Below are positions 8,451-26,218 of a stretch of DNA of 64,000 bases, piece after piece; positions within the stretch are counted from its first letter, which is position 1; every line of letters begins with the position of its first letter. This DNA is from Chrysogorgia sp. JL179-B06 (lineage: Eukaryota > Cnidaria > Anthozoa > Scleralcyonacea > Chrysogorgiidae). The notes under the pieces were generated by a model. It did no database searches, was not told the origin of the DNA, and saw only the letters and a list, made by a program, of their open reading frames with translations. The DNA lies in contig JAYKKM010000072.1 in assembly GCA_035772405.1 (NCBI GenBank), positions 62,001-126,000 on the forward strand. Reading direction: 5' to 3'. The translations under genes and the position numbers were made by a program.

Positions 8451-8618
8451 AGTAGTATAGCAAGTAGGGCTGCGAGCCCAATCGACTTCAAACGTGAATA
8501 TAAACACCAAAACATCACCAAATTTGCCAAATCACGATTCGACAAATTTGGTGATGTTTTGGTGTTTATATTCACGTTTGAAGTCGAATAAGCTCTCAGC
8601 CCTACTTGCTATACTACT
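8451..8618. repeat. Near-palindrome at the left terminus
   Basis: The terminal 84 bases (agtagtatagcaagtagggc...) are followed by their own reverse complement ending ...gctatactact at 8618, with roughly eight mismatches between arms (for example gcgagcccaa versus gagagcttat). It could fold into a long terminal hairpin. The same structure is at 26051-26218. Confidence 0.93.
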
Positions 8619-8898
8619 ACAGCGATCGTTAGTCAATCTAGACACCCCTCGCACGTTTTCTACTAAATTGATGTCAAACACACGCGAGACTAGCGAAACA
8701 ATACCAAATTTATACTAAATTTGACACCATTTCAGCCACATTTAAAAAATAGAGAGTGTCGTTTCAAAATTCTCACAAATTACATTTAGGAAAAAATAGA
8801 AAGTGTCGTTTCAACATTTTCGCGTGTTAAAAAAATAAAATGTGGAGCGAGCCCACTTTCGCATATTAAAAAATAGAGAGTGTCATTTCAACATTTTC
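8451..8898 (+). repeat. Polinton left terminal inverted repeat (448 bp)
   Basis: Reads as the reverse complement of 25771-26218 with no mismatch that I can see. The outer 168 bp form a near-palindrome. The inner part holds three copies of a motif read on the other strand as TGAAACGACACTTTCTATTT (8740-8900). Matching stops after 'tcaacattttc' at 8898. Confidence 0.95.
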
Positions 8899-8955
8899 GC
8901 ATTTTTGTTCAACAAACTACGACCGACGCGTTCTCAATTCACGCGCGAAAAAAAA

Positions 8956-8980
8956 ACCACTAGATTTTGATTCTAGTGGT
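8956..8980. terminator. Perfect 9-bp stem-loop downstream of the polymerase gene
   Basis: Stem accactaga / tctagtggt with a 7-base loop, 85 bp beyond the polymerase stop (minus-strand transcription). It may mark a transcript 3' end, but that is a guess; no family-level precedent is claimed. Confidence 0.35.
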
Positions 8981-9064
8981 GATGTTTATCCAAATGGATA
9001 GCAAAATGGTGCTCTTTTGATCGGCTAACAACGTTAGCTAACAAATAGCCAACTACTCTACGAA

Positions 9065-12000
9065 TTAGTCCGTTTGCTCACTACTCTCAGTGGTGTCTCT
9101 CACTACAATGTTTTTGTGACCATATGCATAGGAGTCAATACCATTTTCTAAAAGGTATCGTTTATCGTCGAAGCAGGATAGCGATACTTTATTAATTTCA
9201 TAACTACCAATCTGATGCTTGACACTTCTAATGGTCTTCATTGTGTGTCGCAATTGTTTCTGCTCAAGTAACACACTTTTGTAATCTTCGTGTCTGATTA
9301 CTTTTTTAATTATATTCTTTCTAATGCCTTTAGCGGTTTTCCCACCACCCCCACCCTCTTTCAAATAGCTATACATTTTACTGCGCAACCCAACGAACTC
9401 AATAATTGGTGTTCCAGCGCACTCGTCCTTCATCTTCCCAATAACTTTCTTATTCTCTTTAAAAGCGAATGGGCTGTCTGCGGGGTAATCGCTATTGTCA
9501 AACTTTTCGCGCTCCATCATAAAGTCAGAGTAGACGTCGCCAGTTTTGATTGAGTACAACAGACTGTCAGTGTCAGTGAAGTGCAATCTACAGGTGTCGC
9601 TAGAGTACTTTTTCATAATATAATTATAGTGAAAATTGTACATCAGCGTTTTGCTCAAGTCTAGTATGCACATACCCACGTATGCGGGTCTATTTAATGT
9701 CAGCGTTTCTTTGACTTTGTGGACAGCGACTAAGTTCTCGCTAAATATTTTGCAAGACACAAACGTCAGCTTCGAGACAAGCTTTTCTAACTTTTTCTCG
9801 GTGGTCACTAATCTTACATCCACACGCTTCCTCAAATTCTCCATCGTTTTTCCGAACACACTATTGTTCATCAACTTGAAAAAGTCCTTCTCAAAAGCGT
9901 TCTTAGCCGCAGTTCTTTTGACTGTGTTAAAGTCAATGTACTTACCCAACCACTTGGACTGGTCAAACTGTAGGACCCTATGCACCTTTTTGATTTTCAA
10001 TCCAAGATCTACATACAACTGCAGATTTCTATAGTGACACACATACTTTTTTTTGTTCATCAAATTAGTCACCAGCTTCTTCACACCGCCAACACTCACA
10101 TCAAACTTATTTTTAATTTTCGTGCAGTACTCCGACAACATGTCGACAGTTATTTCCATCTTCTCAGGAGCCACCGGGTAGTCGTTGTGTAGGTCATGCA
10201 AATGGTCTGGGTATTCCAAGTCGACTTCAAGCAACAGACCCTTTTTACTACCGTCGTGATAGTCGCATAGATTAACTTTTTTTATCTCTTTCTCAGTCAA
10301 CCACTTGAAGCCACCCGTAGGTAAACTTTGACTCATCGCCCATCCATACAGATTGTTGGCATCAAGGTACATCAAATACTTCGACTCTCGCTCTTTGTCA
10401 TACCCTTCCATGTACTTATTATTCGCCACGCCATGTCTGTTACATATGTAGCTCACACCACCACGCATACCTAGTTCTACGAACTGGAACATGTCGATGT
10501 CGGACAATAATTCGAGTTCTACTCCAGTCATCTTTAGCATGGCGTCCCAAGCCAATCCAGGCGATGTGAAATAATGGCAAGGGTCTAATTTATACTCGCG
10601 ATGGCATGTCTTTCTAAAGTTCTCAAAAACGTCGGCAAGCAAGAGCACATCGCTTTTCAAATACAGGTCGTGGTACTCACCCATACTCTCAACGTCGAAG
10701 TAGTCCCACACGTCGATGGCGCGCTCGTGCATTTCCTCCGTGATGTGCTCATCGTTCAGAATGCTGTAGAAGTCCTTTTTGGAGGGTAGCTCGCTTTCGT
10801 CGAATTTTTCAAAGGAGTCCATATAATCATAAGGATAGACCCCCTTTCTTGTCATAAGTGCCAACCCGTCGTCACGAAACACTTCTGACGTGTATTTGAA
10901 AGCGTCCCTTGGTAGGTTCTTCACCAAGTTGTCTAGACCACTACTCATGAACTGGAAGCTGTCCAAAAATACTAAGTTTTTTCCAAGCATGAACGCCATG
11001 TACTTCTCCATGTTGTTTGGTATCACATTTATGTCTTGACCAAACTTGCCAATCTCCTGCATAATGAAATGGCTATCGTAACCGCGCAAGTTATGGAAGA
11101 TCACAGGAATTTTATCAGTCAATCTAAAGTTCACGTTACACTGACGATGCGCAGACCCTCTGTACTTACCTGAGACATGACAGTGGTCTCTCACTCTAAC
11201 GTCAGCACTAGTGTACTCAACACTGCAAATATGACAACTTTTAGCCTCGTCGAAATTCTTCTTATCGTCGTCAGTCAACACCATTTCTTTGTTAAAGTGG
11301 CTCTCAGATGTCTTTTTACAATACTCAACAATTTCTAACATCTCCCCAATGAACTTGTTGACTGCGTTTTCACCGCGATACACTTTCACTGGCTTACTAT
11401 ACGCATTATCATAGCAACAAACCAGTTTATACCCATAACCACAGTCAACGTGCCTCTGGTAAGCATTTGTGTAGCTACGCTCGCTTGATGGTGTCGCTGT
11501 GTGCACCTTCTGTGTGATAGCCTCAAAGTCTGCGTACACCACAAATGGCACATTTAGCTGTCTACTAAAATTCTCGTATTTCACTTTCGCACCTTTTTGT
11601 GGCATTTTAATAGCTTGCTTCCCATTGATGACCAAACACACTTCAATATGACTTTCAAGCACATCCGCGCGGGTGAAACACTGCAAACAATACCTGCAAA
11701 AGTGCTTTCTCGCCTTATACTTTGTCTGACGGTACATGAACTTGTTAAAATCGCGAATGTACACATAATGCTTGTTGCCCGCGTCATTAGTTATCAACAG
11801 TAGGTCCATATGGTCAGGATACGCCTCCTTAGAAACGTACACAGGGAATGGCTGCTTATTTTCATACCCAAAAACATTTATGCTAATATCGTTCGCCTTT
11901 TCGATCTTGTTGTAGTCTTTGAGTGTGACTGGGAAGTCAATTCCGTCATAATTCAACTCACTGGCATGCCTAGCGTACTTCGACGTTCTATCGGAGTGTT

Positions 12001-12676
12001 TTCCAACAGGAAACTTATGCGCTAGGTGACACCATCTAAAGCACTTGTTGTCATCATCGTTATTTACATTTATCAGACCCTTCATACTGTTGCGCAGCTC
12101 CTTTGGCAACACAATGTAGCTACTCCCACGCAAAGGTCTGTAAATAGCGACATTAACGTAGTGTGCATCTATTTTGTCGATAGTCCATCCAGACCCCTCA
12201 GATAACCACCCAGCTATCCGCGTCAAAATCTGCTCCGATCCACGATTGGCAACACCCTCGATGTCATGCTCGTTAATGACGACGAACGTCTCGCTGTTAA
12301 AGTAGGCAGTTTTGTACGTGGTCTTATCGAGTTCTAAAACTTTCTCAAAAGTGACCTTGACTGTCTCCACCACTTTCATCCCGTTGGTCTCACCTAGTTC
12401 ACGTCTCAAAAGGTTAGTGACAGCGCTTCTACTACCATTTACCTGATTGATGTCTCTGTCGTCAATTACTTCGACTCCATAGGACCTTGTGAACCCTCTC
12501 AGTGCTCGATCCAACAGATGCGTTGACGGTGCGAGGTCTTCGACTAGAGGTTGTGTTTCTTGGTCTCTAAAGAAGCCGTGAACGTTGGTCGCTTCATCTG
12601 TTAGTGAATTGACAACGGCTGCACTCGTCTTATGCGCCCGTCTTTTTTTCAGCGGGTTCCTCACAGTCCGACTCAT
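9065..12676 (-). CDS. PolB: Protein-primed family B DNA polymerase
   Basis: Copies the linear element DNA by protein-primed synthesis with proofreading. 1203 residues, close to the usual Polinton size. Visible in order: N-terminal region of unknown fold (1-310), a Cys/His zinc-finger-like segment (327-347), exonuclease motif I 'YADFEA' (381-386), an endonuclease-VII-like zinc site (C481, C484, D497-H500, C514), exonuclease II 'FHNLRGYDS' (527-535), exonuclease III 'YLKSDVLLLAD' (672-682), polymerase A 'YLDANNLYG' (770-778), B 'KLMNNSVFGKT' (934-944) and C 'FTDTDS' (1033-1038). All key residues are present. The ATG overlaps the preceding gene's stop by four bases (ATGA). Its last residues 'SSEQTD' resemble those of the gene at the other end. 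It is the left terminal gene. Confidence 0.97.
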   Translation of the reverse strand: MSRTVRNPLKKRRAHKTSAAVVNSLTDEATNVHGFFRDQETQPLVEDLAPSTHLLDRALRGFTRSYGVEVIDDRDINQVNGSRSAVTNLLRRELGETNGMKVVETVKVTFEKVLELDKTTYKTAYFNSETFVVINEHDIEGVANRGSEQILTRIAGWLSEGSGWTIDKIDAHYVNVAIYRPLRGSSYIVLPKELRNSMKGLINVNNDDDNKCFRWCHLAHKFPVGKHSDRTSKYARHASELNYDGIDFPVTLKDYNKIEKANDISINVFGYENKQPFPVYVSKEAYPDHMDLLLITNDAGNKHYVYIRDFNKFMYRQTKYKARKHFCRYCLQCFTRADVLESHIEVCLVINGKQAIKMPQKGAKVKYENFSRQLNVPFVVYADFEAITQKVHTATPSSERSYTNAYQRHVDCGYGYKLVCCYDNAYSKPVKVYRGENAVNKFIGEMLEIVEYCKKTSESHFNKEMVLTDDDKKNFDEAKSCHICSVEYTSADVRVRDHCHVSGKYRGSAHRQCNVNFRLTDKIPVIFHNLRGYDSHFIMQEIGKFGQDINVIPNNMEKYMAFMLGKNLVFLDSFQFMSSGLDNLVKNLPRDAFKYTSEVFRDDGLALMTRKGVYPYDYMDSFEKFDESELPSKKDFYSILNDEHITEEMHERAIDVWDYFDVESMGEYHDLYLKSDVLLLADVFENFRKTCHREYKLDPCHYFTSPGLAWDAMLKMTGVELELLSDIDMFQFVELGMRGGVSYICNRHGVANNKYMEGYDKERESKYLMYLDANNLYGWAMSQSLPTGGFKWLTEKEIKKVNLCDYHDGSKKGLLLEVDLEYPDHLHDLHNDYPVAPEKMEITVDMLSEYCTKIKNKFDVSVGGVKKLVTNLMNKKKYVCHYRNLQLYVDLGLKIKKVHRVLQFDQSKWLGKYIDFNTVKRTAAKNAFEKDFFKLMNNSVFGKTMENLRKRVDVRLVTTEKKLEKLVSKLTFVSCKIFSENLVAVHKVKETLTLNRPAYVGMCILDLSKTLMYNFHYNYIMKKYSSDTCRLHFTDTDSLLYSIKTGDVYSDFMMEREKFDNSDYPADSPFAFKENKKVIGKMKDECAGTPIIEFVGLRSKMYSYLKEGGGGGKTAKGIRKNIIKKVIRHEDYKSVLLEQKQLRHTMKTIRSVKHQIGSYEINKVSLSCFDDKRYLLENGIDSYAYGHKNIVVRDTTESSEQTD

Positions 12677-13251
12677 TGGCTTCTATATACTACACTTGTT
12701 TTTTTCCTAAACCACTCGTTGTAATAATTGTCGCCACTTTCACACCATCCTAGCTTTGGGTACACCACCCCAAACAAATTGTCGTCGAACAAGTCTTTCA
12801 CCTTCCCGTCTTTGAGGTCTGACACCTTCTTGAGTGTCTTGACTCGTCTTCTGTGGCACAACCTAATAATGTAGTATCCGTATCTGCTGACATTTCTACC
12901 CTTTATCAAATTGCATGAGTGCAACACGTTGACAACTTTCAAGAAGTCCTCTTTTATCAACTCAAGGTGCTCACCCTTCACAACGTTCCGTAGTCTCCTC
13001 CCCATCCACCAAGACCGTTTGTGAACGCTTTTTAGTCGTGTGAGTCTCATGTCGCTGTAACTCTGAGTGTAGCCCCATTCGGTGTCGCCACACTTTGGAC
13101 ATGCGTACCCACCACAGTCAGTCACATTTTTCACAACGTCACAATCCGAGCAGTAGTAAAGCCTGAAGGTGCCTCCACACTCAATTTGCGTCTCATTCGC
13201 GATTTCGTCAATTGTGCAGCCGTAACTCATCTGCCTCATAAGTTTGTCCAT
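12673..13251 (-). CDS. Zinc-ribbon protein, candidate VLTF3-like late transcription factor
   Basis: 192 residues from the first ATG (13251); a GTG just upstream was not used. Near the N-terminus a four-cysteine zinc ribbon is visible (CSDCDVV ... CPKCGD, residues ~33-56), followed by a basic, tryptophan-rich region (KRSWWMGRRLRN), a 'GEHLELIKEDF' helix and a 'RYGYYIIRL' segment. The order zinc ribbon, basic patch, acidic helix and tyrosine-rich helix resembles poxvirus-type late transcription factor 3 proteins of large DNA viruses, but this is my pattern judgement only. It sits directly upstream of the polymerase gene with a 4-base overlap, so it is probably co-expressed. Alternative: an unrelated DNA-binding zinc protein. 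Confidence 0.45.
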   Translation of the reverse strand: MDKLMRQMSYGCTIDEIANETQIECGGTFRLYYCSDCDVVKNVTDCGGYACPKCGDTEWGYTQSYSDMRLTRLKSVHKRSWWMGRRLRNVVKGEHLELIKEDFLKVVNVLHSCNLIKGRNVSRYGYYIIRLCHRRRVKTLKKVSDLKDGKVKDLFDDNLFGVVYPKLGWCESGDNYYNEWFRKKTSVVYRSQ

Positions 13252-13276
13252 CACTCTTATACTACTCCAACATTTT

Positions 13277-13696
13277 TTACCGAGTGAGTACCCACACTAC
13301 TATTCCACTACCCAAACCTAACGCGCTAACAAACAACAATTGGTATTCCTTCATTTCCGCACTCGGTTGGTAGTAATCCGCAATCTTCGGGGAGTTAGTG
13401 AACACTCGTCCGCTGTACTGTATGGTCATTACGCTTCTAAGCTCTTCCAACGCGTGGTTTGTGTCATTGATGTCAGCATTAGCATCAGAGAGCCGTTGTC
13501 GTAAACGCTGGATCTTATCTTTCTTAGCGACTTCATTCTCATACCACACTTCTTTCGCACTGGCTAGCTGTTCCAACGCATGGTTATGTCTTTTCATCTC
13601 AGCTTCATAGCCTGAATGATTAAACTTTGAAAACATAAAGCCAGCGCCTGCAAAAGCCACTGCATTAAATATCCCTCCAGCCACAACGCTCGCCAT
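13277..13696 (-). CDS. Small protein with two membrane segments and a coiled coil
   Basis: 139 residues. A hydrophobic glycine/alanine-rich N-terminus (residues ~3-23) and a hydrophobic C-terminus (~119-137) flank a charged middle (~30-90) with heptad-like leucines and 'RLRQRLSDAN', suggesting a coiled coil. No family identified. The short spacing to both neighbours suggests one transcription unit with the polymerase block. A virion membrane or core protein is possible, but not shown. Confidence 0.7.
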   Translation of the reverse strand: MASVVAGGIFNAVAFAGAGFMFSKFNHSGYEAEMKRHNHALEQLASAKEVWYENEVAKKDKIQRLRQRLSDANADINDTNHALEELRSVMTIQYSGRVFTNSPKIADYYQPSAEMKEYQLLFVSALGLGSGIVVWVLTR

Positions 13697-13700
13697 TAAC

Positions 13701-13937: not shown

Positions 13938-13960
13938 ATATACATTGTCGTGTGTTTTGT

Positions 13961-14308
13961 TTAAGAATCAAACGTGTCTAACGCTGGACGACAAGTTCTA
14001 CGATTTTCTGACGTGGGTGACGCTGCAGTACTCACAGGTTCTAGTCGTGTTTCTTTTTCACTACTAATTGTGTACCACAATGAAGCAGCAGCAACGATAA
14101 CACCAAGTGTTCCTACAATATAACCATAGCTCCACTCACTACTCTGTTCTTCGTTGACTATCATTTCACGCATTTTCTTTTCTTTCGCAGCTTTCGATAT
14201 CTCAGCCAGCTTTTTACCAGCAGCGACGCGCTTTGGGTCCTTCACCTTAACACTTTTCACATCAGCTGTGATCTTAGCTTCAACAGCCGTCTGTGAGTCC
14301 TCAGTCAT
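13961..14308 (-). CDS. Single-pass membrane protein with basic N-terminal half
   Basis: 115 residues. The N-terminal half is lysine-rich ('DPKRVAAGKKLAEISKAAKEKK', about residues 24-45), then one transmembrane segment 'YIVGTLGVIVAAASLWY' (~61-77) and a polar tail. A basic region next to a membrane anchor would suit a DNA- or core-binding virion protein. First gene of the left minus-strand block, transcribed away from the thymidine kinase across a 181-bp divergent region. Confidence 0.65.
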   Translation of the reverse strand: MTEDSQTAVEAKITADVKSVKVKDPKRVAAGKKLAEISKAAKEKKMREMIVNEEQSSEWSYGYIVGTLGVIVAAASLWYTISSEKETRLEPVSTAASPTSENRRTCRPALDTFDS

Positions 14309-14489: not shown

Positions 14490-15059
14490 ATGAGAAAAGT
14501 TGGTAAACTAGAGATCGTGATTGGTCCCATGTTTGCAGGAAAAACAACCGAGACTCTTCGCAGGTTAGTCACGTTAAGTAAGTCAGGGCTCAAAGTCCTT
14601 TACATGAACAACACAGGTGACACTAGGCGAACTGACCACGCGTTCTCCACACATCGTCAGACCATTGTTGTCGGATCAGACAGTTTACCTGCGAAGTTAA
14701 TCACCAACCTTCCAAGTTCTTCCGAGATAGCTGATTATGACGTCATCGGCATTGATGAAGGCCATTGGTACTCCGATCTGTCAGTTATTCGCGAATACAT
14801 TAAAGCTGGCATTCACGTCATCATTTGTGGTCTCATATCAACAGAGCATTTAAAAAGACTTGGTGAGCTCGACACACTGTTCCCAGTAGCAGACGACATC
14901 ACATTTCTAAAAGCGTATTGCGCCGTTTGTCGTGACACTTACGGAACAACTGTTGAAGCGCCATTCAATTGGAGATACAACCCAGGACCATCGTTTGTTG
15001 GTGGTGCTGAGCAATATCGTGCAGTGTGCAGACGTCATCATCCTTCCACACAAAATTAA
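14490..15059 (+). CDS. TK: Thymidine kinase, TK1 type
   Basis: Phosphorylates thymidine to dTMP and would feed DNA synthesis in cells with low dNTP pools. 189 residues, normal for the family. P-loop 'GPMFAGKTT' (residues 12-20), Walker-B-type 'IGIDEGHWY' (about 85-93), a CxxC pair 'CAVC' and a C-terminal 'AVCRRHH' forming the zinc lasso, with 'GGAEQYRAVC' as the substrate-binding end. One difference from the usual DEGQ is a His in the fourth position. Reads alone on the plus strand between two minus-strand blocks. TK is not a core Polinton gene, so acquisition from a host or another virus is likely. Confidence 0.95.
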   Translation: MRKVGKLEIVIGPMFAGKTTETLRRLVTLSKSGLKVLYMNNTGDTRRTDHAFSTHRQTIVVGSDSLPAKLITNLPSSSEIADYDVIGIDEGHWYSDLSVIREYIKAGIHVIICGLISTEHLKRLGELDTLFPVADDITFLKAYCAVCRDTYGTTVEAPFNWRYNPGPSFVGGAEQYRAVCRRHHPSTQN

Positions 15060-15296: not shown

Positions 15297-16064
15297 CTAA
15301 AAAGTCTCTTTACAATAGCGTCTCTCATGGTTGCTCAACGCTGATTTATTTTTAAATTTACGAAAACACTGAGAGCACTGAAACCCAACGTCAAAGAGAT
15401 ATTTTATCACTGTGGTAATAGCGTCGTCGTACGAGTCGCACAAGAGTGTTAGATAACCAGCAGATTTGTATCTAAGCAGCAGAGACTCCTGCTCTTTGGA
15501 CGTCTTGCCTGTACCACCTGGATTCTTGAACTCAATCACAAGCCCGCTGTGCTGTCGGTTTGCGTTGGCAATAATCAAGTCAGGCGTTCCACGTTGGTAA
15601 CCTTTTTTCCACGAATTTATTCTTTTACTCGAAGTGTCTTGATTCTCACCACAAGCGGCTATCAAAATAGCTTCTGGATAATATCTCCTAAGAAAACCAA
15701 CAACTTTCGTGTGGAGATCGAACTCAGTGATCATTTTAAACTGATTGTGTTTGAGACCAACGTCAGCTAAACTTTTTCTAACGCTTGGCAAGACCTCTGA
15801 GTGCACCCACCTTCCAAAGTGTTTCGCACGCTCCATTTTACTTGAGAACACTAATGAGTAGACCCCAAGTTCGTTGATAAACGAGGTCTGTTCCATCTTC
15901 ATTTTGCAATCAGGTTCGACGTGGTCGTTGACTACATCTTTTGGTCGAGCATAACCTAGAGCGCTCGCGACTTCTTTCGCTTTGAACCATATTTCACCGT
16001 TGTCCATAACCGTTGTGATTTGGTGGCCATCGAAGTCGAATAATCGAAGCGCTGTGGAGGTCAT
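15297..16064 (-). CDS. BRO-N / VRR-type nuclease / C2H2 fusion
   Basis: 255 residues from the first ATG; a GTG seven codons earlier is open but unlikely. N-terminal BRO-N DNA-binding domain (residues ~5-100: 'EIWFKAKEVASALGY', 'FGRWVHSEVLPSVRKS'). Middle: a restriction-type nuclease core ('KKGYQRGTPDLIIANA' then 'GLVIEFKNPGGTG', matching the G-x-P-D ... E-x-K pattern of VRR_NUC/PD-(D/E)xK enzymes; ~155-230). C-terminal C2H2-like finger 'CSQCFRKF ... HERRYC'. A likely DNA-binding structure-specific nuclease in replication, repair or resolution of termini. First gene of its minus-strand segment on the left; preceded by 'TATAATATAGTG'. Confidence 0.85.
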   Translation of the reverse strand: MTSTALRLFDFDGHQITTVMDNGEIWFKAKEVASALGYARPKDVVNDHVEPDCKMKMEQTSFINELGVYSLVFSSKMERAKHFGRWVHSEVLPSVRKSLADVGLKHNQFKMITEFDLHTKVVGFLRRYYPEAILIAACGENQDTSSKRINSWKKGYQRGTPDLIIANANRQHSGLVIEFKNPGGTGKTSKEQESLLLRYKSAGYLTLLCDSYDDAITTVIKYLFDVGFQCSQCFRKFKNKSALSNHERRYCKETF

Positions 16065-16451: not shown

Positions 16452-17402
16452 TTACTTTACACCATATTCCTTCATCATTTCTCCACCCATGATTATGATG
16501 TCTCGGTTCGTCATGTAACCACTCACAATTTTCACACCGTAGAACTCTATCAACGATGGGTATGCATAGGGTGCGAGTGGTATTCTTGGTCGATGTATTC
16601 CAAAAATTGTTCCATAGGGTGTGCCTATTTTTTTCATGTTCGCTACGAAGTCTGAGTCGGTTGACTTAACGTTATTGACCCTGACATGTGAATTGTACAT
16701 TTGCCAGTGTATCGATATCATATGCATTTTACTTATGTCAACACCACTCGGAATAGTGCATATGCTCTCCATCGCTGGGATGCTACCACCATACGCGAGT
16801 CCGTTAGTCATACCAGTCTTGTACCCTATGAACTTATCCCACTGACCGTCGTCGTTCGATATAATTGTCTCCCAATTTGATCCAGCGGTGCGAGTAGGTA
16901 ACCTCACCACAACAAAAATAGAGAGATCACACCATTGCATACTGGGGCAGTTAAAATGGAGACCTGACTCAAGTGGGATTGGTGTTAACACGGGGGATAG
17001 AAAACTTTGACTCACACCGCTGATGCCAACAATAGGACCATAAGCCGGGTTGTTTTGCACTAATTTACTTGTTTCACCAATAGCTTTCACTTTGTTTGAA
17101 CCATTGGTGTGAAATTCCACATTTTTCAAGGCGTGTGTGCTAACGTTGAAGTCGAGCACAACATTGTAGGACTGACTCTTGAGGAAACCTGCTAGCAATT
17201 GCTCTAGAGTTCTTTTATTCGCAGCGTCTGAGTCATCGACTGGGTCTGCTACGTTTTTTATCGCTGAGCCTTGCATGTCTATTATTCCAGACATCCTTCC
17301 ACCGGTCGCGCTTAATTTAGGATCTTCGTCCAGATGCCTTTTCGTTCTCTTTAGTATTTTATCGTGAGGGTCGTCAGACTCATACCCGTAGTTTAGACTC
17401 AT
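16452..17402 (-). CDS. Fibre-like protein with tail-fibre motif and lectin-like C-terminal domain
   Basis: 316 residues. Near the N-terminus 'GRMSGIIDMQGSAIKNVADP' followed by 'DSDAANKRTLEQ' (residues ~35-68) matches the 'G-x-I-x-M-x-G-x-x-I-x-N-(V/L)-x-(D/x)-P ... DAA-x-K' repeat motif known from phage tail fibres and some other viral fibres. The remaining ~200 residues (from ~110) are rich in beta-strand patterns ('CDLSIFVVVRLPT', 'MHMISIHWQMYNSHVRVNN') like a concanavalin/laminin-G lectin fold. This suggests a trimeric virion spike that binds a host surface glycan. Neighbours are the 495-residue membrane protein and the MGACFS protein. Confidence 0.65.
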   Translation of the reverse strand: MSLNYGYESDDPHDKILKRTKRHLDEDPKLSATGGRMSGIIDMQGSAIKNVADPVDDSDAANKRTLEQLLAGFLKSQSYNVVLDFNVSTHALKNVEFHTNGSNKVKAIGETSKLVQNNPAYGPIVGISGVSQSFLSPVLTPIPLESGLHFNCPSMQWCDLSIFVVVRLPTRTAGSNWETIISNDDGQWDKFIGYKTGMTNGLAYGGSIPAMESICTIPSGVDISKMHMISIHWQMYNSHVRVNNVKSTDSDFVANMKKIGTPYGTIFGIHRPRIPLAPYAYPSLIEFYGVKIVSGYMTNRDIIIMGGEMMKEYGVK

Positions 17403-17404
17403 TA

Positions 17405-18892
17405 CTACTTCAAGGTGTATTTGGTTAACAGATAGCCAGAGACTGCTGAGAACCCCAAGATTATCACCAGCGTTGTCGTGTCTGACTCACTTGTGGTAGT
17501 GACCACTGTTTTTTTCACAGGAGGTGGTGTCACATTTTCTTGGTGAACTTTTTTAGCCACAGTCGTTGGTGCCACCACACTTTCTTGGTGAGCTTTTTTC
17601 TTCACGGTCGTTGGCACTACTAGGGAGTGAGTCACCACATTTTCTTGGTGGACTTTTTTAGCCGTAATTGTTGGTGTTGTTGCATTCAAGCTAGTGTTCA
17701 CTCCAAATCTCATGGACTCTGTAGCAACCTTTAATAAGTTGTTGTACCCAGCGATTTTATTCTTGAGAATCACCACGTTACTTGGCATCAACCATGTACT
17801 TGGCGACACTGCAAGATTTTGAACAACGTTGGTGTCTCTAATCGATTTATTCATGTTGAGAATCCATGTCGACACGTCATACTGAATAACACTGTCAGAA
17901 AACAACTTGCGGAATTCTTGTTGGGTCTCTAGACTTCCTGCAGAACCACCAACGACTGATACACGTGTTCTCGCTTGCGCACCAAGTGTGGAGTACACAA
18001 AGGACTCTATGCTCTGATTTAGATATTGCAGTCCAATGTTGGTAAAGCCGTCTGAGAGTCGTGCGACGTATCGTTTGTAATCGTTGTGGATGTCGTTGAG
18101 TGTGAAGACTCTGGATTCACCTGTTGTGCCATCGCTCAGGACTTTATTCTGGTAGTAATGCTTTTTGGGGATCTTGGAAATCTTACCATACAATTCGGAA
18201 GCGTTGAATTCTCTACTTATTGATTTCATTGTCTCACCACCCTCCATTCTTCTAAGAAGTCTTCTAATGGTGAAGTACAAATGAAACCTCATCACACTTG
18301 TGACCACGGGGTGAACTTCTTGTGACACTGATAAATGTTGCAATGACACCCCACAACAGAAACTCGCACAATACGTTGCAAACACAACACGGTAGTAAGA
18401 TTCGTTGTCATCCCACTCTGATTTTGTCTTTGACGTGGTGATTTGTAAGACTGGTAGCTTTGACATGAAGTAGCTACTCTGGTTAACAAAAACTTTAAAG
18501 TTATTCACTGGATAATTCAACACGTTTTCTGTTGGATAGCCATCCCAAAGCCCCCAGTGGTTCTTATGACCTTTTGGCAATGGTTGGATAGTCCCACCAC
18601 CTTGCCATATTATTGGGAACTTGCTATTGTGTAACCACTTCCACATGTTTTTGTTATTTTTGAAGGTTGCGCTGGTTATGTCTGTGCTAAGGATGTCGTT
18701 GTTTCTGAAATACACGTCAACACTCATGATTTTACCATCTTGTGAAATATTTGGATAGAACTCGAATTTGCTTAAAGTAGCGTGGGGGTACTTTTTGATG
18801 AGGTCTGCCTTTGCGTTGTGTGTAGCCTTTGATGTGTTAGCCATCGCGAGTTTGTAGTACTTCCCATAGTACTCACGAAGGGCTTTCTGCAT
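17405..18892 (-). CDS. Tail-anchored 495-residue virion-type protein
   Basis: No family recognised. The N-terminal ~380 residues look globular ('LDTQQ'-like 'SLETQQEFRKLF', 'APSTWLMPSNV'-type 'SPSTWLMPSNVVILKNKIAGYNN'). Residues ~410-455 contain three imperfect copies of 'KK(V/A)HQE.VV' separated by Thr/Val/Pro-rich linkers, followed by one C-terminal transmembrane helix 'TLVIILGFSAVSGYLLTKY' (~470-489). This suggests a protein held in a membrane by its tail through a flexible stalk. It is divergent from the penton gene, with only 12 bp between the two start codons, so they share a promoter. Confidence 0.75.
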   Translation of the reverse strand: MQKALREYYGKYYKLAMANTSKATHNAKADLIKKYPHATLSKFEFYPNISQDGKIMSVDVYFRNNDILSTDITSATFKNNKNMWKWLHNSKFPIIWQGGGTIQPLPKGHKNHWGLWDGYPTENVLNYPVNNFKVFVNQSSYFMSKLPVLQITTSKTKSEWDDNESYYRVVFATYCASFCCGVSLQHLSVSQEVHPVVTSVMRFHLYFTIRRLLRRMEGGETMKSISREFNASELYGKISKIPKKHYYQNKVLSDGTTGESRVFTLNDIHNDYKRYVARLSDGFTNIGLQYLNQSIESFVYSTLGAQARTRVSVVGGSAGSLETQQEFRKLFSDSVIQYDVSTWILNMNKSIRDTNVVQNLAVSPSTWLMPSNVVILKNKIAGYNNLLKVATESMRFGVNTSLNATTPTITAKKVHQENVVTHSLVVPTTVKKKAHQESVVAPTTVAKKVHQENVTPPPVKKTVVTTTSESDTTTLVIILGFSAVSGYLLTKYTLK

Positions 18893-18904: not shown

Positions 18905-19615
18905 ATGTTATACATGACGCGAAAGTTGACAGTGTTCATTGAAGGTGCGGAAAAAGTTGTGTCATTTGACAACGCGATGATGGTCATACATGATAACCCA
19001 TACATTGTGGTCAAGACAGCCACTGTGTTTTGGGACTATCATAACACAACAAATGACGACAGCATTCAGGTCTTCACGCTGGATAGCTCTAGGGCAGGCT
19101 CTTTTAAAAAGATTAAAGTGGGTGAAGGGTACTTTAGCTTCGACGCATTGGTCAAAGTCTTGAAACACGAGTCTAGCGAGCTTAGGGTGGATCTTGAGAT
19201 AGAGAAACTAGTGCCCACAGGCAAATGTAGGGTCAAGGTTAGTAGCTCAGCTGTGTTAGACACCATTGGGCCTCTACTTGGTTTCGCGAAGGGTGAGGTG
19301 ATTCAGAATGACTCACAGTGGCACACTAGCCCGAACGAGGTCGACATGTATAAAGGTCTGAAGTACATAGAAGTTTCGTGTGACGTCGTTGAGACGGAGA
19401 GCGACGTGGGTATTGATGGGAAGCGTAGCGATGTGATCACAACGTTGCCAATACCTACCGAACAGTCATTGAAAGGGTCAGTGCAACGTCATGTAGACAT
19501 TGAGTCAAAGGTGGGTATTAAAAAGGGTGTTTACTCAAGTATGACGTTTCGCGTCAAACCAAATAACGACGATCTCAAAATTGGCGCGGTGTTATTGGAA
19601 CTGTATATTGTGTGA
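18905..19615 (+). CDS. mCP: Minor capsid (penton-like) protein
   Basis: 236 residues, typical of Polinton penton proteins (single jelly roll). Seen: beta-rich pattern, 'DTIGPLLGFAKGEV' (~88-101 after the first half), then 'LKYIEVSCDVVETESDVGIDGKRSD' and a final 'SMTFRVKPNNDDLKIGAVLLELYIV'. The 'LGF...v.CD' order and the terminal strand are those of the penton family. It heads the plus-strand capsid block; an in-frame second ATG at 18914 could also serve. Confidence 0.75.
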   Translation: MLYMTRKLTVFIEGAEKVVSFDNAMMVIHDNPYIVVKTATVFWDYHNTTNDDSIQVFTLDSSRAGSFKKIKVGEGYFSFDALVKVLKHESSELRVDLEIEKLVPTGKCRVKVSSSAVLDTIGPLLGFAKGEVIQNDSQWHTSPNEVDMYKGLKYIEVSCDVVETESDVGIDGKRSDVITTLPIPTEQSLKGSVQRHVDIESKVGIKKGVYSSMTFRVKPNNDDLKIGAVLLELYIV

Positions 19616-19620
19616 ATTAT

Positions 19621-20724
19621 ATGGAGCTTGGTGTGGAGACAGAGCAAGGGTTGAGAGACATCTATTATAATCCTAAGACAGGGTACAGTGGTGCAGAGAG
19701 GCTGTATCAAAGTGCGTTGGGAGACGGATTGAAAGTAACTAGAAAAACAGTGAAAGAATGGTTGACAGCGCAGGACACCTACACTAGGTACAAACCTATC
19801 GTGAGAAGGCATAAATTCCGTGCTACCCTCGTCGGATTTCTTGGTGAAGAGCTCCAAATGGACTTAGTGGACATGAGTAAGTACTCAAAACAGAATGGAG
19901 GTTATTATTGGATATTGACAGGCATTGAAATATTGAGTAGATACGCTTTTGGAATCGCAGTTTATAGAAAAGACGCTAAGAACATGACTAAGGCTGTTGG
20001 AAAATTGTTGGTTGACTTTAAAGATCGGTTTGGAACCATGCCTAAATTAGCGCAATTTGACGACGGACTTGAGTTCTATAACGTTGGTGTGAAAAGTTTG
20101 CTGAAAAAACACGGTGTTGAATATTTCAGCACTAAGAGTGATAAAAAGGCCGCTGTTGTCGAGCGTTTTAATAGAAGTCTGAAGAGTATTATGTGGAAGT
20201 ACTTTTACACCCGTGGAACGTATAAATGGATTGGGGGTCTCGACCAGTTTGTGAGCAATTACAATAGCAATGTGAATCGAAGTATTATGATGAAGCCAAA
20301 GGATGTCAATAAGTCGAACGAAGGTGAAGTTTGGACTACTTTGTTTGGTCATCAATTTGCGGACAATCCATTGCCAAAGTTTAGAGTTGGTGAGTCAGTG
20401 AGAATTAGTAAATACAAGAGCGTGTTCACAAAGGGCTATGAAGCCAACTTCACTGAAGAGCTGTTTAAAGTGGTGAAAGTTATTCGCGGTGATCCAAATG
20501 TGTATGAAATTGAGGACATAAGTGGTGAACAGATTATTGGTAAATTTTATGAACAGGAATTATCGCTGGTCAATAAGAAACATGGTGACGATGTGTACAG
20601 AGTTGAAAAGGTGTTGAAAAGAAAGAAAGTCAGAGGGAAGAAGATGGCGCTGGTCAAATGGTTGGGTTATGAGAGCAAACATAATTCATGGACACCAGAA
20701 AGCGATATTCAAAATGTGAGCTAA
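19621..20724 (+). CDS. INT: Retroviral-type integrase with chromodomain
   Basis: Catalyses insertion of the element and creates the 6-bp target duplication. 367 residues from the first ATG; a GTG nine bases upstream is not needed. Numbered from that GTG, the DDE core shows D84 ('LQMDLVDMSK'), D150 in 'FDDGLEFYN' and E184 in 'VVERFNRSLK'. The C-terminus (~328-368) is a chromodomain ('YRVEKVLKRKK', 'ALVKWLGYESKHNSWTPE') that may guide insertion to chromatin marks. All catalytic residues are present. Five bases after the penton stop. Confidence 0.97.
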   Translation: MELGVETEQGLRDIYYNPKTGYSGAERLYQSALGDGLKVTRKTVKEWLTAQDTYTRYKPIVRRHKFRATLVGFLGEELQMDLVDMSKYSKQNGGYYWILTGIEILSRYAFGIAVYRKDAKNMTKAVGKLLVDFKDRFGTMPKLAQFDDGLEFYNVGVKSLLKKHGVEYFSTKSDKKAAVVERFNRSLKSIMWKYFYTRGTYKWIGGLDQFVSNYNSNVNRSIMMKPKDVNKSNEGEVWTTLFGHQFADNPLPKFRVGESVRISKYKSVFTKGYEANFTEELFKVVKVIRGDPNVYEIEDISGEQIIGKFYEQELSLVNKKHGDDVYRVEKVLKRKKVRGKKMALVKWLGYESKHNSWTPESDIQNVS

Positions 20725-20730
20725 TGTAAT

Positions 20731-21681
20731 ATGGCTGAAGGTGGCTTCGACGACCTTGAGGTGGAGAGATCTGACGAATACAAAGATGTCACTGACGACG
20801 AACTAAAGTATAGTCTCGAAAAAGCCACTCAAGATCGCAAACTATCTCGGAACGATCCAAACGTCACAGTCGATGAGAAAATTAGACTAATTAGAGTGGA
20901 GAGTGGACTGAGGCGTGAACGTGATGTAAGATTTCGCCAACACATGAAGGAGGATTTTAACGATATTACAACGCGGGTTAATGACATCGTAAGAGATCGT
21001 GAAGACGTCGCGAGGAGTGTACCATTGTTAGACACCACACGTGCAGAGTACGTTGACATACCTGGGCTAACACCAATCGAGAACCGTGAGTTGGATAGCG
21101 CGCTCAATCCAAGCGAGAGTGTGACGTCTGAGTCGAGAGTAGGCGACACTGGCACATTGCAAATACAAGCGGACCACTTTCAAGACTTGATAAATGAAGC
21201 GAGCGAAAGAATGGCGGAGCTTGATAGGGAGGGCTCCACGATCGCAGAGAACGAAGAGTATATCGATCTAGCTGAAAGAATGGTTGGACTTAGACAGGCT
21301 AGAGACAAAATTATTAAACAGCGAGAAATGGAAGAAGTTAGAGAGCGACAGGAAGTCGATATTGACAGATTGCAGAAGTTCAAGAAGTGGGCTAGAGAAA
21401 ATATGGTTGGGTCTAGCGCTTTAGCGATTGCAATAGCTGCAATTATAACAACTATTATTATCGCTGGGAGGTCTAATGTTATGAGAGGCGCTATGGTCAC
21501 GAGGTCGTTTGCACAGGCTGTTAAAAATGCGATAACGAAGATGGGTCCATGGGCTGTTGGATTGGCGAACTTAGTTTATGACACGCTGGTGACAGGCGCG
21601 AGGGGCCTCGCTTGGTTAGCTCAAAATCTGTGGGTGTTTGCGGTGACATTCGCGTGGCTTGCGTACAATTATTTAAACTAA
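20731..21681 (+). CDS. Duplicated membrane protein, short copy
   Basis: 316 residues. Acidic, helical N-terminal part ('DEYKDVTDDELKYSLEKA'), a central 'LLDTTRAEYVDIPGLTP' motif and coiled-coil-like charged region (~130-215), then two or three hydrophobic helices (~225-316: 'ALAIAIAAIITTIIIA', 'GLAWLAQNLWVFAVTFAWLA'). About the last 200 residues are closely related to the next gene. Not a recognised enzyme; similar multi-pass tails are seen in Polinton virion proteins, and a role like the adenovirus pX/pVI membrane-active proteins is conceivable. Starts seven bases after the integrase. Confidence 0.75.
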   Translation: MAEGGFDDLEVERSDEYKDVTDDELKYSLEKATQDRKLSRNDPNVTVDEKIRLIRVESGLRRERDVRFRQHMKEDFNDITTRVNDIVRDREDVARSVPLLDTTRAEYVDIPGLTPIENRELDSALNPSESVTSESRVGDTGTLQIQADHFQDLINEASERMAELDREGSTIAENEEYIDLAERMVGLRQARDKIIKQREMEEVRERQEVDIDRLQKFKKWARENMVGSSALAIAIAAIITTIIIAGRSNVMRGAMVTRSFAQAVKNAITKMGPWAVGLANLVYDTLVTGARGLAWLAQNLWVFAVTFAWLAYNYLN

Positions 21682-21682
21682 A

Positions 21683-21739
21683 AGCAAACGTAACTTATGG
21701 ACGCCGGAAAGTGACGCTCAAAATGTGAGCTAGTGTAAT
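21683..21739 (+). pseudogene. Remnant of the integrase 3' end between the paralogues
   Basis: Bases 21683-21749 match 20674-20740 (agcaaac, then tatggacgccggaaag versus catggacaccagaaag, then caaaatgtgagcta and taatatggct). In 20674-20724 this encodes the last residues of the integrase; in the second copy it is non-coding leader. It marks the boundary of a tandem duplication of the downstream gene. Confidence 0.9.
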
Positions 21740-23083: not shown

Positions 23084-23105
23084 CGATAAAACATATGTAA
23101 AGTAT

Positions 23106-24344
23106 ATGAACGCCACGTCAGCAGAGTTGAGTCCTGGTTTTAGACGAGCGACCATGGGTGGCATAAAAGGGGTGAGAACACAGCATGTGATCACGTTGAA
23201 CCCTAATAAAGTCAGTCCTGGCGAGGAACTTTACATTGATATACCGAAGCTCAAGGTTAGTAGCTGTTTGGTGCCTGGATCGTTGGGTCTAGTGTTCGAC
23301 TTTAAGAATGCAAACGCCAAAAGCTGGTTCTTGAACAATGTCAGCAAGTTGTTGGTTGAGAAACTTGTTGTGAGACTAGCTGGGGAAACTGTGTATGACA
23401 ACAATGGGGAAAATTACACTGGTGTTTATCGCGACCTTTGGGAAAGTGTTACTGCGCGAGACCGAATGATTGATTATGGTATTGGTGGTGAGAACTTGAG
23501 AAAGCTAGTTTCTAAGGATGACAGTGGTGCGACGAGTGGGAACGCCGCTAAAGTTAGTGACGCGTTAATGTTTGGTGTGATTGGGACGAAGCAGCGGATT
23601 AAGCTTGGTAAAATCATGAACGACCATGGGTTGTACGCTCCTTTTAGCATGAACAACAACTTGCAGTATGTGATCACACTTCCGAAGGCCACAGACATCA
23701 TGGTGGCACAATCCGGTAGCGCTGTGGGTGGATACACTCTGGAGAACCTCGAGCTTGAGTATGAGACGATTGATAACCAGGAGCTCGCTGACGAAATAGC
23801 GTCGGGCTATGCAAGTGGTCGTAGTTTGTCATATGAGCACATCACGTTGATGAAAACCACTGAATGGGATAAAGGTACGACCATCGTAAACGAGAACATA
23901 AATCTTCCAAGAAAAAGCATGAAGGCAATTGTGTTGTTATTCACGAATAAGGTGCGAACAGACAGTGAGGAGTTTCTCTACCCAAATATTGAGAGTGTTA
24001 GAGTCACAATTGAAGGTGTGCCAAATAGCGTGTACTCACAAGGCATCCCAAAGTCGAAGTTCTATGCAGAAGCGAAACGACTGTTTGGGTTGGGTGAAGA
24101 ACACGCTCAGTTCATGACCATACAGAAGTTCTATAAAGATGGCTTTGCGTTGGTCATCGACTTGAGGAGCGTTCAAGATAATCGCAATGTCGCCACTGGC
24201 AAGAACATTGTAAACACACAATCTGGCGTGCTTCTTGAAATCACTAAAAAAGTGACGACCGCGAATGTTATGTGCAGGGTGTTTGTGATAAGTGATGGGT
24301 TGGTCAACTTCATGAACAATGGGTTGCAGTCAATCCAGTATTAA
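23106..24344 (+). CDS. MCP: Major capsid protein (double jelly roll)
   Basis: 412 residues, at the small end of the Polinton MCP range. Recognised by 'KVSSCLVPGSLGLVFDF', 'NNVSKLLVEKLVVRLAGE' and 'YRDLWESVTARDRMIDYG' in the first half, and by alternating strands in the second ('MKAIVLLFTNK', 'SVRVTIEGVPNSVYSQG', 'GFALVIDLRSV'). This order is that of cnidarian Polinton/adintovirus MCPs. It builds the icosahedral shell. Followed by the packaging ATPase, the usual pairing. No transmembrane segment. Confidence 0.82.
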   Translation: MNATSAELSPGFRRATMGGIKGVRTQHVITLNPNKVSPGEELYIDIPKLKVSSCLVPGSLGLVFDFKNANAKSWFLNNVSKLLVEKLVVRLAGETVYDNNGENYTGVYRDLWESVTARDRMIDYGIGGENLRKLVSKDDSGATSGNAAKVSDALMFGVIGTKQRIKLGKIMNDHGLYAPFSMNNNLQYVITLPKATDIMVAQSGSAVGGYTLENLELEYETIDNQELADEIASGYASGRSLSYEHITLMKTTEWDKGTTIVNENINLPRKSMKAIVLLFTNKVRTDSEEFLYPNIESVRVTIEGVPNSVYSQGIPKSKFYAEAKRLFGLGEEHAQFMTIQKFYKDGFALVIDLRSVQDNRNVATGKNIVNTQSGVLLEITKKVTTANVMCRVFVISDGLVNFMNNGLQSIQY

Positions 24345-24359
24345 ATCAAACGTGAGTTA

Positions 24360-24959
24360 ATGGAGACTCCGTTTAATATGTTAATTGTTGGTATGACAGC
24401 TTGTGGTAAGACGCATTATTTGCTGGAAACATTGGAATCTGAGTATCGTGGTAAATTTGACTACATTGTGTTGATTTGTCCTACTTTCGAGTGGAACAAA
24501 GCGTACCAAGATTGGAAATATGTGCGTGACCCTGACGTGCTAGCGATAGACTGTGCGCAGGACAGTGTCGACGCTGTTCTCAAGTGTGTAACAAATGTTT
24601 TTAAAGGCACTAACACTCTGATTGTGTTGGACGACTGTGCGAGTGGACAGGATGTCAAGAATAGGACTAGTCAATTGGTCAACTTAGCTTTTAGTGCGCG
24701 ACATTTTACGCTGAGCGTTATTGTCATCACACAACAACTGACGTCGATCGCAAAACCGTACAGAGAAAATATTAGTAAGCTTGTTTGCTTCTACTGCCCA
24801 AGTAGGAGTGATATGAAGGTCGTTATCGACGATTACCTTGGAAACATTAGCAGAGAAAAATCGTCGGCGATTGTGACCGCATTAAAAAATAATAAGTACG
24901 CTAGACTCGAAATCTCACTGCGCTATCCATACAGTCACGAAGTTGTTATTCCGCAATAA
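24360..24959 (+). CDS. ATP: Genome-packaging ATPase (A32/FtsK type)
   Basis: Pumps element DNA into the capsid. 199 residues, usual for the family. Walker A 'GMTACGKTH' (residues 11-19), Walker B 'TLIVLDDCA' (~86-94), and a sensor-type 'VIVITQQ' (~121-127). All needed residues are present. Fifteen bases after the MCP stop. Confidence 0.96.
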   Translation: METPFNMLIVGMTACGKTHYLLETLESEYRGKFDYIVLICPTFEWNKAYQDWKYVRDPDVLAIDCAQDSVDAVLKCVTNVFKGTNTLIVLDDCASGQDVKNRTSQLVNLAFSARHFTLSVIVITQQLTSIAKPYRENISKLVCFYCPSRSDMKVVIDDYLGNISREKSSAIVTALKNNKYARLEISLRYPYSHEVVIPQ

Positions 24960-24962
24960 AAT

Positions 24963-25472
24963 ATGGGTATAAGTAATAACGTGATGGTGAAACGCAAAAG
25001 TGAAGAAAACCCTACGATTGAGGAATTAGTTGAGGAGACTGACGACACCCCAACTGTGGAAGACAACGTCGACGCTAGGAGATCTGAACTAATTAGACTG
25101 TCTGGCGATGGTGTGGTGAGCCAATCTGAGGCGTATATTAAAAAAGCGTCCGCAAAGGTTATCGACAAGATATGGCGCCAATACGAGTTGAAGAGAATGG
25201 AAATCGCAAACGCTTTTCTCACTGACTTGCTAATCAGCAAATTCGCTAGCTTACTAGATGGGTTGAACGCCATTGAGAACCCTGACGAACTAAACGACGA
25301 ACTACAAAAAGACCCGCTATTAAAAAAAGACGTTGAGAGCATTGTCGCGGTTGTGACGCCGTACGTGCCTTTCTTGGGCTTGTTGTCGGGAGGAATCACA
25401 ACGTCAAAATATGTGTACGATCATCATTTTAGAAGTGCGACAAACGCTGAAAATAGTGAACAAACGGACTAA
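24963..25472 (+). CDS. Terminal small protein, possible virion component
   Basis: 169 residues, starting three bases after the ATPase stop. Acidic N-terminus, then a helical middle ('KKASAKVIDKIWRQYELKRM') and a hydrophobic patch ('SIVAVVTPYVPFLGLLSGGIT', residues ~123-143). No known family. The last seven codons and stop (ENSEQTD) closely match the polymerase end (ESSEQTD), because 27 bases containing 'caaacggactaat' are inverted copies at 9060-9090 and 25449-25475. Confidence 0.72.
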   Translation: MGISNNVMVKRKSEENPTIEELVEETDDTPTVEDNVDARRSELIRLSGDGVVSQSEAYIKKASAKVIDKIWRQYELKRMEIANAFLTDLLISKFASLLDGLNAIENPDELNDELQKDPLLKKDVESIVAVVTPYVPFLGLLSGGITTSKYVYDHHFRSATNAENSEQTD

Positions 25473-25545
25473 TCTATTATTAACAGGTGGCAATAACCTA
25501 ATTTGCATAACAGGTGGCAATTTTATCACGCGTGAGACACTTTTA

Positions 25546-25800
25546 CGATACATAAATTTGTAAAAATGTGATTTGACAAATTTGTGAAAATGTTGAAACG
25601 ACACTTTCTATTTTTTTAAACGTGATTTGACAAATTTGTGAAAATGTGATTTAACAAATTTGTGAAAATGTTGAAACGACACTTTCTATTTTTTAAAATG
25701 TGATTTGACAAATTTGTGAAAATGTTGAAACGGCACTTTCTATTTTTTAAATGCGATTCGACAAATTTGTGAAAATGTTGAAATGACACTCTCTATTTTT
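25546..25800 (-). repeat. Subterminal tandem array (~54-bp unit), right end only
   Basis: Units beginning gtgatttgacaaatttgtg at about 25568, 25622, 25646 (after a shortened unit), 25700 and 25753. Most carry the 'tgttgaaacgacactttc' motif. The left end has no such array, only the three motif copies inside its terminal repeat. Confidence 0.85.
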
Positions 25801-26218
25801 TAATATGCGAAAGTGGGCTCGCTCCACATTTTATTTTTTTAACACGCGAAAATGTTGAAACGACACTTTCTATTTTTTCCTAAATGTAATTTGTGAGAAT
25901 TTTGAAACGACACTCTCTATTTTTTAAATGTGGCTGAAATGGTGTCAAATTTAGTATAAATTTGGTATTGTTTCGCTAGTCTCGCGTGTGTTTGACATCA
26001 ATTTAGTAGAAAACGTGCGAGGGGTGTCTAGATTGACTAACGATCGCTGTAGTAGTATAGCAAGTAGGGCTGAGAGCTTATTCGACTTCAAACGTGAATA
26101 TAAACACCAAAACATCACCAAATTTGTCGAATCGTGATTTGGCAAATTTGGTGATGTTTTGGTGTTTATATTCACGTTTGAAGTCGATTGGGCTCGCAGC
26201 CCTACTTGCTATACTACT
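25771..26218 (-). repeat. Polinton right terminal inverted repeat (448 bp)
   Basis: Reverse complement of 8451-8898 as far as I can read. Ends ...gctatactact at 26218. Confidence 0.95.
26051..26218. repeat. Near-palindrome at the right terminus
   Basis: Mirror of 8451-8618. The outer arm has gcgagcccaa-type bases and the inner arm gagagcttat-type, in the same arrangement relative to the end as on the left. Confidence 0.93.

What the first reader, a model, noticed from the sequence alone, without database searches (positions are those of the whole stretch)
8451..26218. Apparently intact, young Polinton/adintovirus-like provirus
Seen: 448-bp terminal repeats reading as identical, perfect 6-bp target duplication, and 17 uninterrupted long frames including all replication, capsid, packaging and integration genes. 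Known: such a set defines Polintons/adintoviruses. Inferred: recent insertion, perhaps able to make virions.
Basis: partly seen in the sequence, partly recalled or inferred. Interest (0 to 1): 0.85.

Follow-up and report, generated by a model that had tools for sequence, protein, structure and literature searches.

The report
One of hundreds of young Polintons
This is a recently inserted, nearly gene-complete DNA virus (a Polinton) in an unidentified, probably animal, genome that carries hundreds of similar copies, whose capsid genes look kept in working order and whose ends carry an unusual hairpin-like palindrome.

Summary
Confirmed: a 17,768-bp Polinton at 8451-26218 with 448-bp identical terminal repeats and a perfect 6-bp duplication. 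I count 15 coherent frames, not 17, including polymerase, integrase, ATPase, double-jelly-roll capsid, thymidine kinase and a Bro-N/VRR-NUC fusion. No adenovirus-type protease was recognised.

It is not a lone provirus. An exact end pattern occurs 828 times in the 781-Mb genome. Of 20 copies chosen by their ends, 18 have perfect 6-bp duplications and 17 an uninterrupted capsid frame; 3 are broken. Terminal repeats differ 0.4% within copies but 6.1% between copies. Capsid dN/dS is 0.054. So many recent insertions came from a diverse pool that still needed its capsid, which favours particle-borne re-infection over a burst from one master.

New: the outer 168-170 bp of each of 80 end sequences (78 places) is an imperfect, co-varying palindrome of fixed orientation. 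Poxvirus- or parvovirus-like flip-flop is not supported. Its role, in end recognition or end repair, is inferred.

Not established: host species, empty site, transcripts, particles, competence of this copy.

The parts
8445..8450 (.). target-site duplication ATCGGG, left copy
8451..8898 (+). left terminal inverted repeat (448 bp identical to right)
8451..8618 (+). terminal imperfect palindrome, two 84-nt arms with 7 mismatches
9065..12676 (-). protein-primed-type family B DNA polymerase, 1203 aa; exonuclease- and polymerase-like motifs present (motif names recalled); embedded endonuclease VII-like stretch at residues 467-516
12673..13251 (-). 192-aa protein with a cysteine-rich, zinc-ribbon-like N-terminus, unidentified
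13277..13696 (-). 139-aa protein with two hydrophobic segments
13961..14308 (-). 115-aa protein with one hydrophobic segment
14490..15059 (+). thymidine kinase
   Evidence: Pfam TK E 6.9e-28; NCBIfam
15297..16064 (-). Bro-N + VRR-NUC nuclease + C2H2 zinc finger fusion
   Evidence: zinc finger below Pfam cut-off
16452..17402 (-). 316-aa fibre-like protein (inferred)
   Evidence: weak phage tail-fibre match E 8.9e-5
17405..18892 (-). 495-aa conserved protein of unknown fold with C-terminal hydrophobic segment
   Evidence: 127 homologues; model; no PDB match
18905..19615 (+). 236-aa minor capsid (penton) candidate
   Evidence: position next to the integrase and recalled resemblance only; no Pfam, NCBIfam or PDB match
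19621..20724 (+). retroviral-type integrase with chromodomain; D81, D147, E181
20731..21681 (+). first copy of a tandemly duplicated membrane-type protein gene, 316 aa
21740..23083 (+). second copy of the duplicated gene, 447 aa, with extra N-terminal region
23106..24344 (+). double-jelly-roll major capsid protein, 412 aa
   Evidence: model pLDDT 71.3
24360..24959 (+). A32-type genome-packaging ATPase
   Evidence: Pfam Pox_A32 E 3.1e-16, (listed); Walker A
24963..25472 (+). 169-aa protein with hydrophobic segment, no cysteine; shares its last residues SEQTD with the polymerase
25554..25807 (+). 54/78-bp tandem repeats that interrupt the inner part of the right repeat
25771..26218 (-). right terminal inverted repeat (448 bp identical to left)
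26051..26218 (-). terminal imperfect palindrome, right end
26219..26224 (.). target-site duplication ATCGGG, right copy

Best explanation
A young provirus of a Polinton (Maverick) family that has entered this genome hundreds of times. Shown: anatomy, 6-bp duplications, high copy number, near-identical ends within copies but diverged ends and genes between copies, and strong purifying selection on capsid and ATPase genes. Inferred: the genome is copied by its protein-primed polymerase, packed by the A32-type ATPase into double-jelly-roll capsids, carried to new germ cells, and inserted by the retroviral-type integrase; most divergence between copies arose in that replicating pool before insertion. 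Inferred with less certainty: the conserved terminal palindrome is a hairpin or cruciform used to recognise or restore the ends, its inner arm serving as a spare copy of the terminus.
For: Exact TIR and TSD. 420 + 408 exact end matches, reversed-pattern control 0 + 0. Capsid search: 101 of 101 scored hits, out of 4,053 candidates, full length, 97-100% identical, no stops (best-scoring only). Sample of 20 copies chosen by ends, not genes: 18 of 20 perfect TSD, 17 of 20 uninterrupted capsid frame. Within-copy TIR divergence median 0, mean 0.42% in 21 copies (12 of 21 zero) against 6.1% mean between copies, n = 210 pairs. Capsid dN/dS 0.054 in 17 copies plus window, 0 of 153 pairs with dN > dS; ATPase 0.087, 0 of 171; 0.038 in a sample picked from the best-scoring hits, 0 of 210. 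Palindrome in 80 of 80 end sequences (78 places), 46 two-sided paired changes against at most 28 in 300 shuffles.
Against: No transcripts, particles or extrachromosomal DNA were tested. No maturation protease recognised. In the sample of 20, 3 capsid frames and 6 polymerase parts are interrupted, so defective copies exist. Singleton changes in the capsid gene have a higher N/S ratio (0.169) than shared ones (0.056), as expected of some decay after insertion. Capsid-dependent spread could also be within one germ line, without free infection between animals. Ongoing gene conversion between TIRs could make copies look younger. The covariation test did not control for relatedness of copies.
Confidence: 0.77

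Rival explanations
1. Capsid-free transposon burst: a few master Polintons copied themselves inside the genome and the capsid genes are passengers.
For: Very high copy number; the integrase and polymerase alone could suffice in principle.
Against: Capsid dN/dS 0.038-0.087 with no pair above 1; smallest capsid distance between any two sampled copies 2.7% or 3.6%, not the near-identity expected of a burst from one master, although TIRs within copies are nearly identical.
Confidence: 0.12
2. Poxvirus- or parvovirus-like replication through inverting hairpin ends (flip-flop), using the VRR-NUC or endonuclease VII-like domain as resolvase.
For: Terminal hairpin-forming palindrome with a bubble; Holliday-junction-resolvase-like match of the VRR-NUC region (E 2.8e-11); endonuclease VII-like stretch in the polymerase.
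Against: The bubble has the same orientation in 80 of 80 end sequences, and a genome-wide pattern for the flipped form gave 2 hits: one a chance host flank, one an end in which both arms carry the outer form. Flipped ends: 0 found. Sampling caveat: ends were collected with outer-form or window-end queries, and ends with other changes in the pattern would be missed.
Confidence: 0.05
3. Old, fixed and domesticated copies kept by the host (for example for antiviral defence).
For: Some families of related elements are discussed as defence systems (abstract starts in the listings); not tested here.
Against: Near-identical TIRs and perfect TSDs point to recent insertions; selection on hundreds of dispersed insertions is less economical than selection before insertion.
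Confidence: 0.04

Closest known systems
Polintons / Mavericks (vertebrate set in PMC8097293, passages read; PMC4028283, passages read)
   Same: TIR length within 46-1,447 bp, 6-bp duplication, (AGT)2//(ACT)2 ends, size within 12.7-24.6 kb, protein-primed polymerase, retroviral-type integrase, ATPase, double-jelly-roll capsid, strong purifying selection.
   Different: No protease recognised (PRO was identifiable in 74% of Polintons there); thymidine kinase and Bro-N/VRR-NUC present; terminal palindrome; at least several hundred copies with mostly uninterrupted capsid frames, against at most 38 intact copies in one vertebrate genome and up to 287 copies, all defective, in axolotl.
Hydra Polinton capsid (PMC4028283, passages)
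   Same: Its capsid protein also retrieved PBCV-1 VP54 as only significant hit there; ours matches PBCV-1 and iridovirus capsids best.
   Different: No direct sequence comparison was made.
Unnamed and Paramuricea clavata (gorgonian) protein relatives
   Same: Capsid 57-65% identical, full length, in rows named Paramuricea clavata.
   Different: Best capsid hit is 73% and unnamed; no DNA of these relatives could be compared.
OmPLV, dinoflagellate Polinton-like virus (PMC12721341, passages)
   Same: Bro-N fused to VRR-NUC, stated there as not previously described.
   Different: OmPLV has tyrosine recombinase and helicase-polymerase fusion; ours has retroviral-type integrase and an added zinc-finger-like end.

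Membership tests
[quoted passage not shown]
   18 of 20 other copies
[quoted passage not shown]
   3,868 homologues, PF03175 precomputed on 8 of the 120 listed; motifs present; the window protein itself gave no PF03175 hit; protein priming not testable
Polinton / Maverick | Retroviral-type (RVE) integrase | tested here: met
   rve E 8.2e-6 (below Pfam cut-off), chromodomain E 5.7e-11, D-x65-D-x33-E
Polinton / Maverick | FtsK/A32-type packaging ATPase | tested here: met
   Pox_A32 E 3.1e-16
Polinton / Maverick | Double-jelly-roll major capsid protein | tested here: met
Polinton / Maverick | Single-jelly-roll minor capsid (penton) | tested here: inconclusive
   236-aa candidate, no database match; not folded
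Polinton / Maverick | Adenovirus-type cysteine protease (found in most, not all) | tested here: inconclusive
   no Pfam hit up to E 0.1; PRO identifiable in 74% of Polintons
Adintovirus family | Adenain-type protease and adintovirus-type hexon | tested here: inconclusive
   protease not recognised; an Adintovirus sp. protein is only rank 12 by fold at 9% identity; defining paper not held
Hairpin-telomere viruses (pox-/parvovirus type) | Both orientations (flip and flop) of the terminal hairpin | tested here: not met
   0 flipped among 80 end sequences and none by genome-wide pattern, with the sampling caveat given

The most novel reading that the evidence does not exclude
This genome is a living reservoir of a circulating virus: hundreds of recent germ-line insertions, drawn from a diverse, capsid-dependent Polinton population, many still able to re-emerge. 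The virus combines protein-primed replication with a terminal palindrome of fixed polarity whose inner arm acts as a spare copy from which eroded ends are rewritten - an end-maintenance scheme different from plain protein priming and from flip-flop hairpins.
Probability: 0.22. Interest if true: 0.82.

Novelty: new variant of a known kind. Interest (0 to 1): 0.62.

Why it matters
Polinton particles had not been observed according to the abstract of PMC8097293 (2021; seen). A host with hundreds of near-intact, recent insertions whose capsid genes are under strong selection is an unusually good place to look for them, and for how an animal genome tolerates such a load. The conserved, oriented terminal palindrome gives a concrete, testable feature of how these genomes keep their ends.

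Tried and rejected
Relatives' DNA: no relatives of the capsid or polymerase in viral contigs, phages or plasmids (polymerase only); one polymerase relative (45%) on a 5.1-kb contig filed under a bacterial MAG, with no inverted repeats. PDB sequence searches of polymerase, penton candidate (77) and fibre candidate (78): no hits. The 495-aa protein: no PDB fold match, best E 0.46; the VIA second look was not run for it. Families not listed by fold search are not excluded.

Flip-flop replication: rejected on orientation. I at first took sampled copy C1's short capsid match (53%) for a cut at the edge of the fetched stretch (my notebook says so); one search shows residues 1-190 are absent next to the match inside the fetched stretch, so C1 is counted as broken.

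The empty-site search, the thymidine kinase search and a mitochondrial-gene search for the host did not complete, so host, empty site and how many copies carry thymidine kinase are open. My idea of C1-type 'cut' copies and of a lone insertion were dropped.

Literature: palindromic or hairpin Polinton ends were looked for (listings only) and by word in PMC11071308, PMC8097293 and PMC10328495 (0 occurrences of 'palindrom'); thymidine kinase in Polintons. None of these showed a report, but the library lacks most subscription papers and the paper that defines adintoviruses.
Full report
Observation. The element's borders are exact: 448 bp identical in inverted orientation, then 458 bp at 99%, flanked by ATCGGG on both sides. 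Inside are 20 ATG frames of at least 80 aa, of which 15 are coherent. Named by profile or fold: thymidine kinase, Bro-N with VRR-NUC, integrase with chromodomain, A32-type ATPase, a family B polymerase with thousands of homologues and a double-jelly-roll capsid protein. The penton and fibre labels are inferences (weak fibre match; nothing for the penton). The integrase keeps D81, D147 and E181, and the ATPase and kinase keep their P-loops (motif names recalled). No adenovirus-type protease was recognised.

Two membrane-type genes at 20731-21681 and 21740-23083 are a tandem duplication with dN 0.32 and dS 1.11 over 316 aligned codons, much of that alignment uncertain; over the last 150 codons dN is 0.19 and dS 0.78. 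The duplication is thus older than the insertion and was under constraint.

Setting. The window is one stretch of a 781-Mb, 522-contig genome. The host could not be named: the only organism named among the 120 listed capsid relatives is the gorgonian Paramuricea clavata. That the host is an animal is an inference.

Copy number. The terminal repeat finds many further ends (99 matches listed, 40 of 3,054 candidates scored). The capsid protein finds 101 scored hits out of 4,053 candidates, all 101 full length, 97-100% identical and without stops; these are the best-scoring ones and so favour intact genes. An exact 30-base end pattern occurs 420 times forward and 408 times in reverse; the reversed-pattern control gives 0 and 0. 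Among the first 100 ends listed, I paired neighbours by eye: 35 of 44 facing pairs lie 15-22 kb apart, nine lie 25-44 kb apart. This suggests about 400 copies, of which a good part are full length.

A sample not chosen by genes. I took the first 20 facing pairs at 15-22 kb in contig order. They have exact ends by construction, so copies with damaged ends are not represented. Of 20, 18 have a perfect 6-bp duplication, each a different sequence; two differ at one base. The capsid frame is uninterrupted in 17; C1, C34 and C35 are broken. The fetched part of the polymerase is uninterrupted in 14 and interrupted in 6, reading two aligned pieces or a stop as a break. Ten of 20 show no break in the capsid, ATPase and polymerase pieces read. 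In an earlier set of 10 copies found by terminal-repeat similarity, 8 have perfect duplications and 2 do not.

Age against divergence. Over the outer 440 bp, the two ends of a copy differ by a median of 0 and a mean of 0.42% (20 copies and the window; 12 of 21 identical; the largest value, 3.8%, is a copy with a large gap). Left ends of different copies differ by 6.1% on average, range 0.9-12.6%, 210 pairs. Insertions are therefore much younger than the split between their lineages, unless ends are continually converted to one another.

Selection. In 17 of those 20 copies plus the window (3 dropped as broken), capsid dS is 0.245 and dN 0.0131, ratio 0.054, with 0 of 153 pairs above 1. For the ATPase, 18 copies plus window (2 dropped), the ratio is 0.087, 0 of 171 pairs above 1. 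Capsid changes seen in one copy only have N/S 0.169 against 0.056 for shared ones, which fits slight decay after insertion. In 20 copies picked from the best-scoring capsid hits plus the window the ratio is 0.038, 0 of 210 pairs above 1, and no two copies are identical. A passenger capsid gene would drift; this one has been kept. PMC8097293 (passages) draws the same inference for cyprinid Mavericks: spread through particles and re-infection. There, intact copies reach at most 38 in a genome, and the largest totals (287 in axolotl) are all defective. My 'hundreds' is not a count of intact copies; it is a count of ends, with intactness known for samples.

Ends. The outer 168 bp fold into one hairpin of two 84-nt arms (-80.1 kcal/mol against a shuffle mean of -13.5, z -24) with 7 mismatched positions. 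All 80 end sequences examined have it, at 168-170 bp; they come from 78 places, as two ends were fetched twice. The 48 distinct sequences pair at 93.0% of cells over 74 pairs against at most 92.2% in 300 shuffles, with 46 two-sided changes against at most 28. Shuffling does not allow for relatedness, and no slid control was run. One mismatch, position 29, is invariant in 48 of 48, and the bubble always points the same way. A pattern for the flipped form gave two hits in the genome: one is chance host flank, the other, at C47, has the outer form in both arms at one end while its other end is normal. So arms are occasionally copied onto each other but ends are not inverted. All ends were collected with window-end or outer-form queries, so divergent forms may be missed.

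Reading. Best supported: a Polinton virus family that has entered this germ line many times recently and depends on its capsid. Inferred: protein-primed replication, packaging, particle transfer, integration. The palindrome is most simply an end-recognition or end-restoring structure; which protein uses it is unknown, candidates being the integrase, the endonuclease VII-like stretch in the polymerase (E 3.8e-4, below Pfam's cut-off) and the VRR-NUC protein.

Novelty. The element is a Polinton by the features tested. [quoted passage not shown] I found no report of the last in the searches or by word in three papers, which is weak evidence of absence.

Noticed in passing
window 15297-16064: Bro-N fused to VRR-NUC and a zinc-finger-like end in an integrase-bearing Polinton; the fusion was described as new for a dinoflagellate Polinton-like virus.
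   Followed up: partly
window 14490-15059: A complete thymidine kinase in a Polinton; whether other copies carry it could not be searched.
   Followed up: partly
window 9064-9104 and 25434-25473: Polymerase and 169-aa protein end in the same residues (SEQTD) through a 41-nt inverted similarity, apparently the inner edge of an older, longer terminal repeat.
   Followed up: partly
window 17405-18892: 495-aa conserved protein; residues 1 to about 340 are modelled mostly with high confidence, and no PDB chain matches. Possibly a new fold.
   Followed up: partly
G000 C47:3082845-3083012 (L109): An end whose two palindrome arms both carry the outer form, while the other end of the copy is normal: apparent arm-to-arm conversion.
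   Followed up: partly
G000 C185:936219-970028: Facing ends 33.8 kb apart with nearly identical repeats and a perfect duplication, probably a copy with a large insert; nine of 44 listed pairs are 25-44 kb apart.
   Followed up: no
L001: A relative of the polymerase (45%) on a short contig filed under an Oligoflexia MAG, probably misbinned eukaryotic or viral DNA.
   Followed up: partly
window 51366-53160 and 54817-58099: Large simple tandem arrays: 14-bp unit, about 128 copies, and 12-bp unit TAATCCTGAACC, about 276 copies, with strong strand skew.
   Followed up: no
window 34003-34075 and 48450-48522: tRNA-Ala-like sequences inside dispersed repeats, probably tRNA-derived short interspersed elements.
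   Followed up: no
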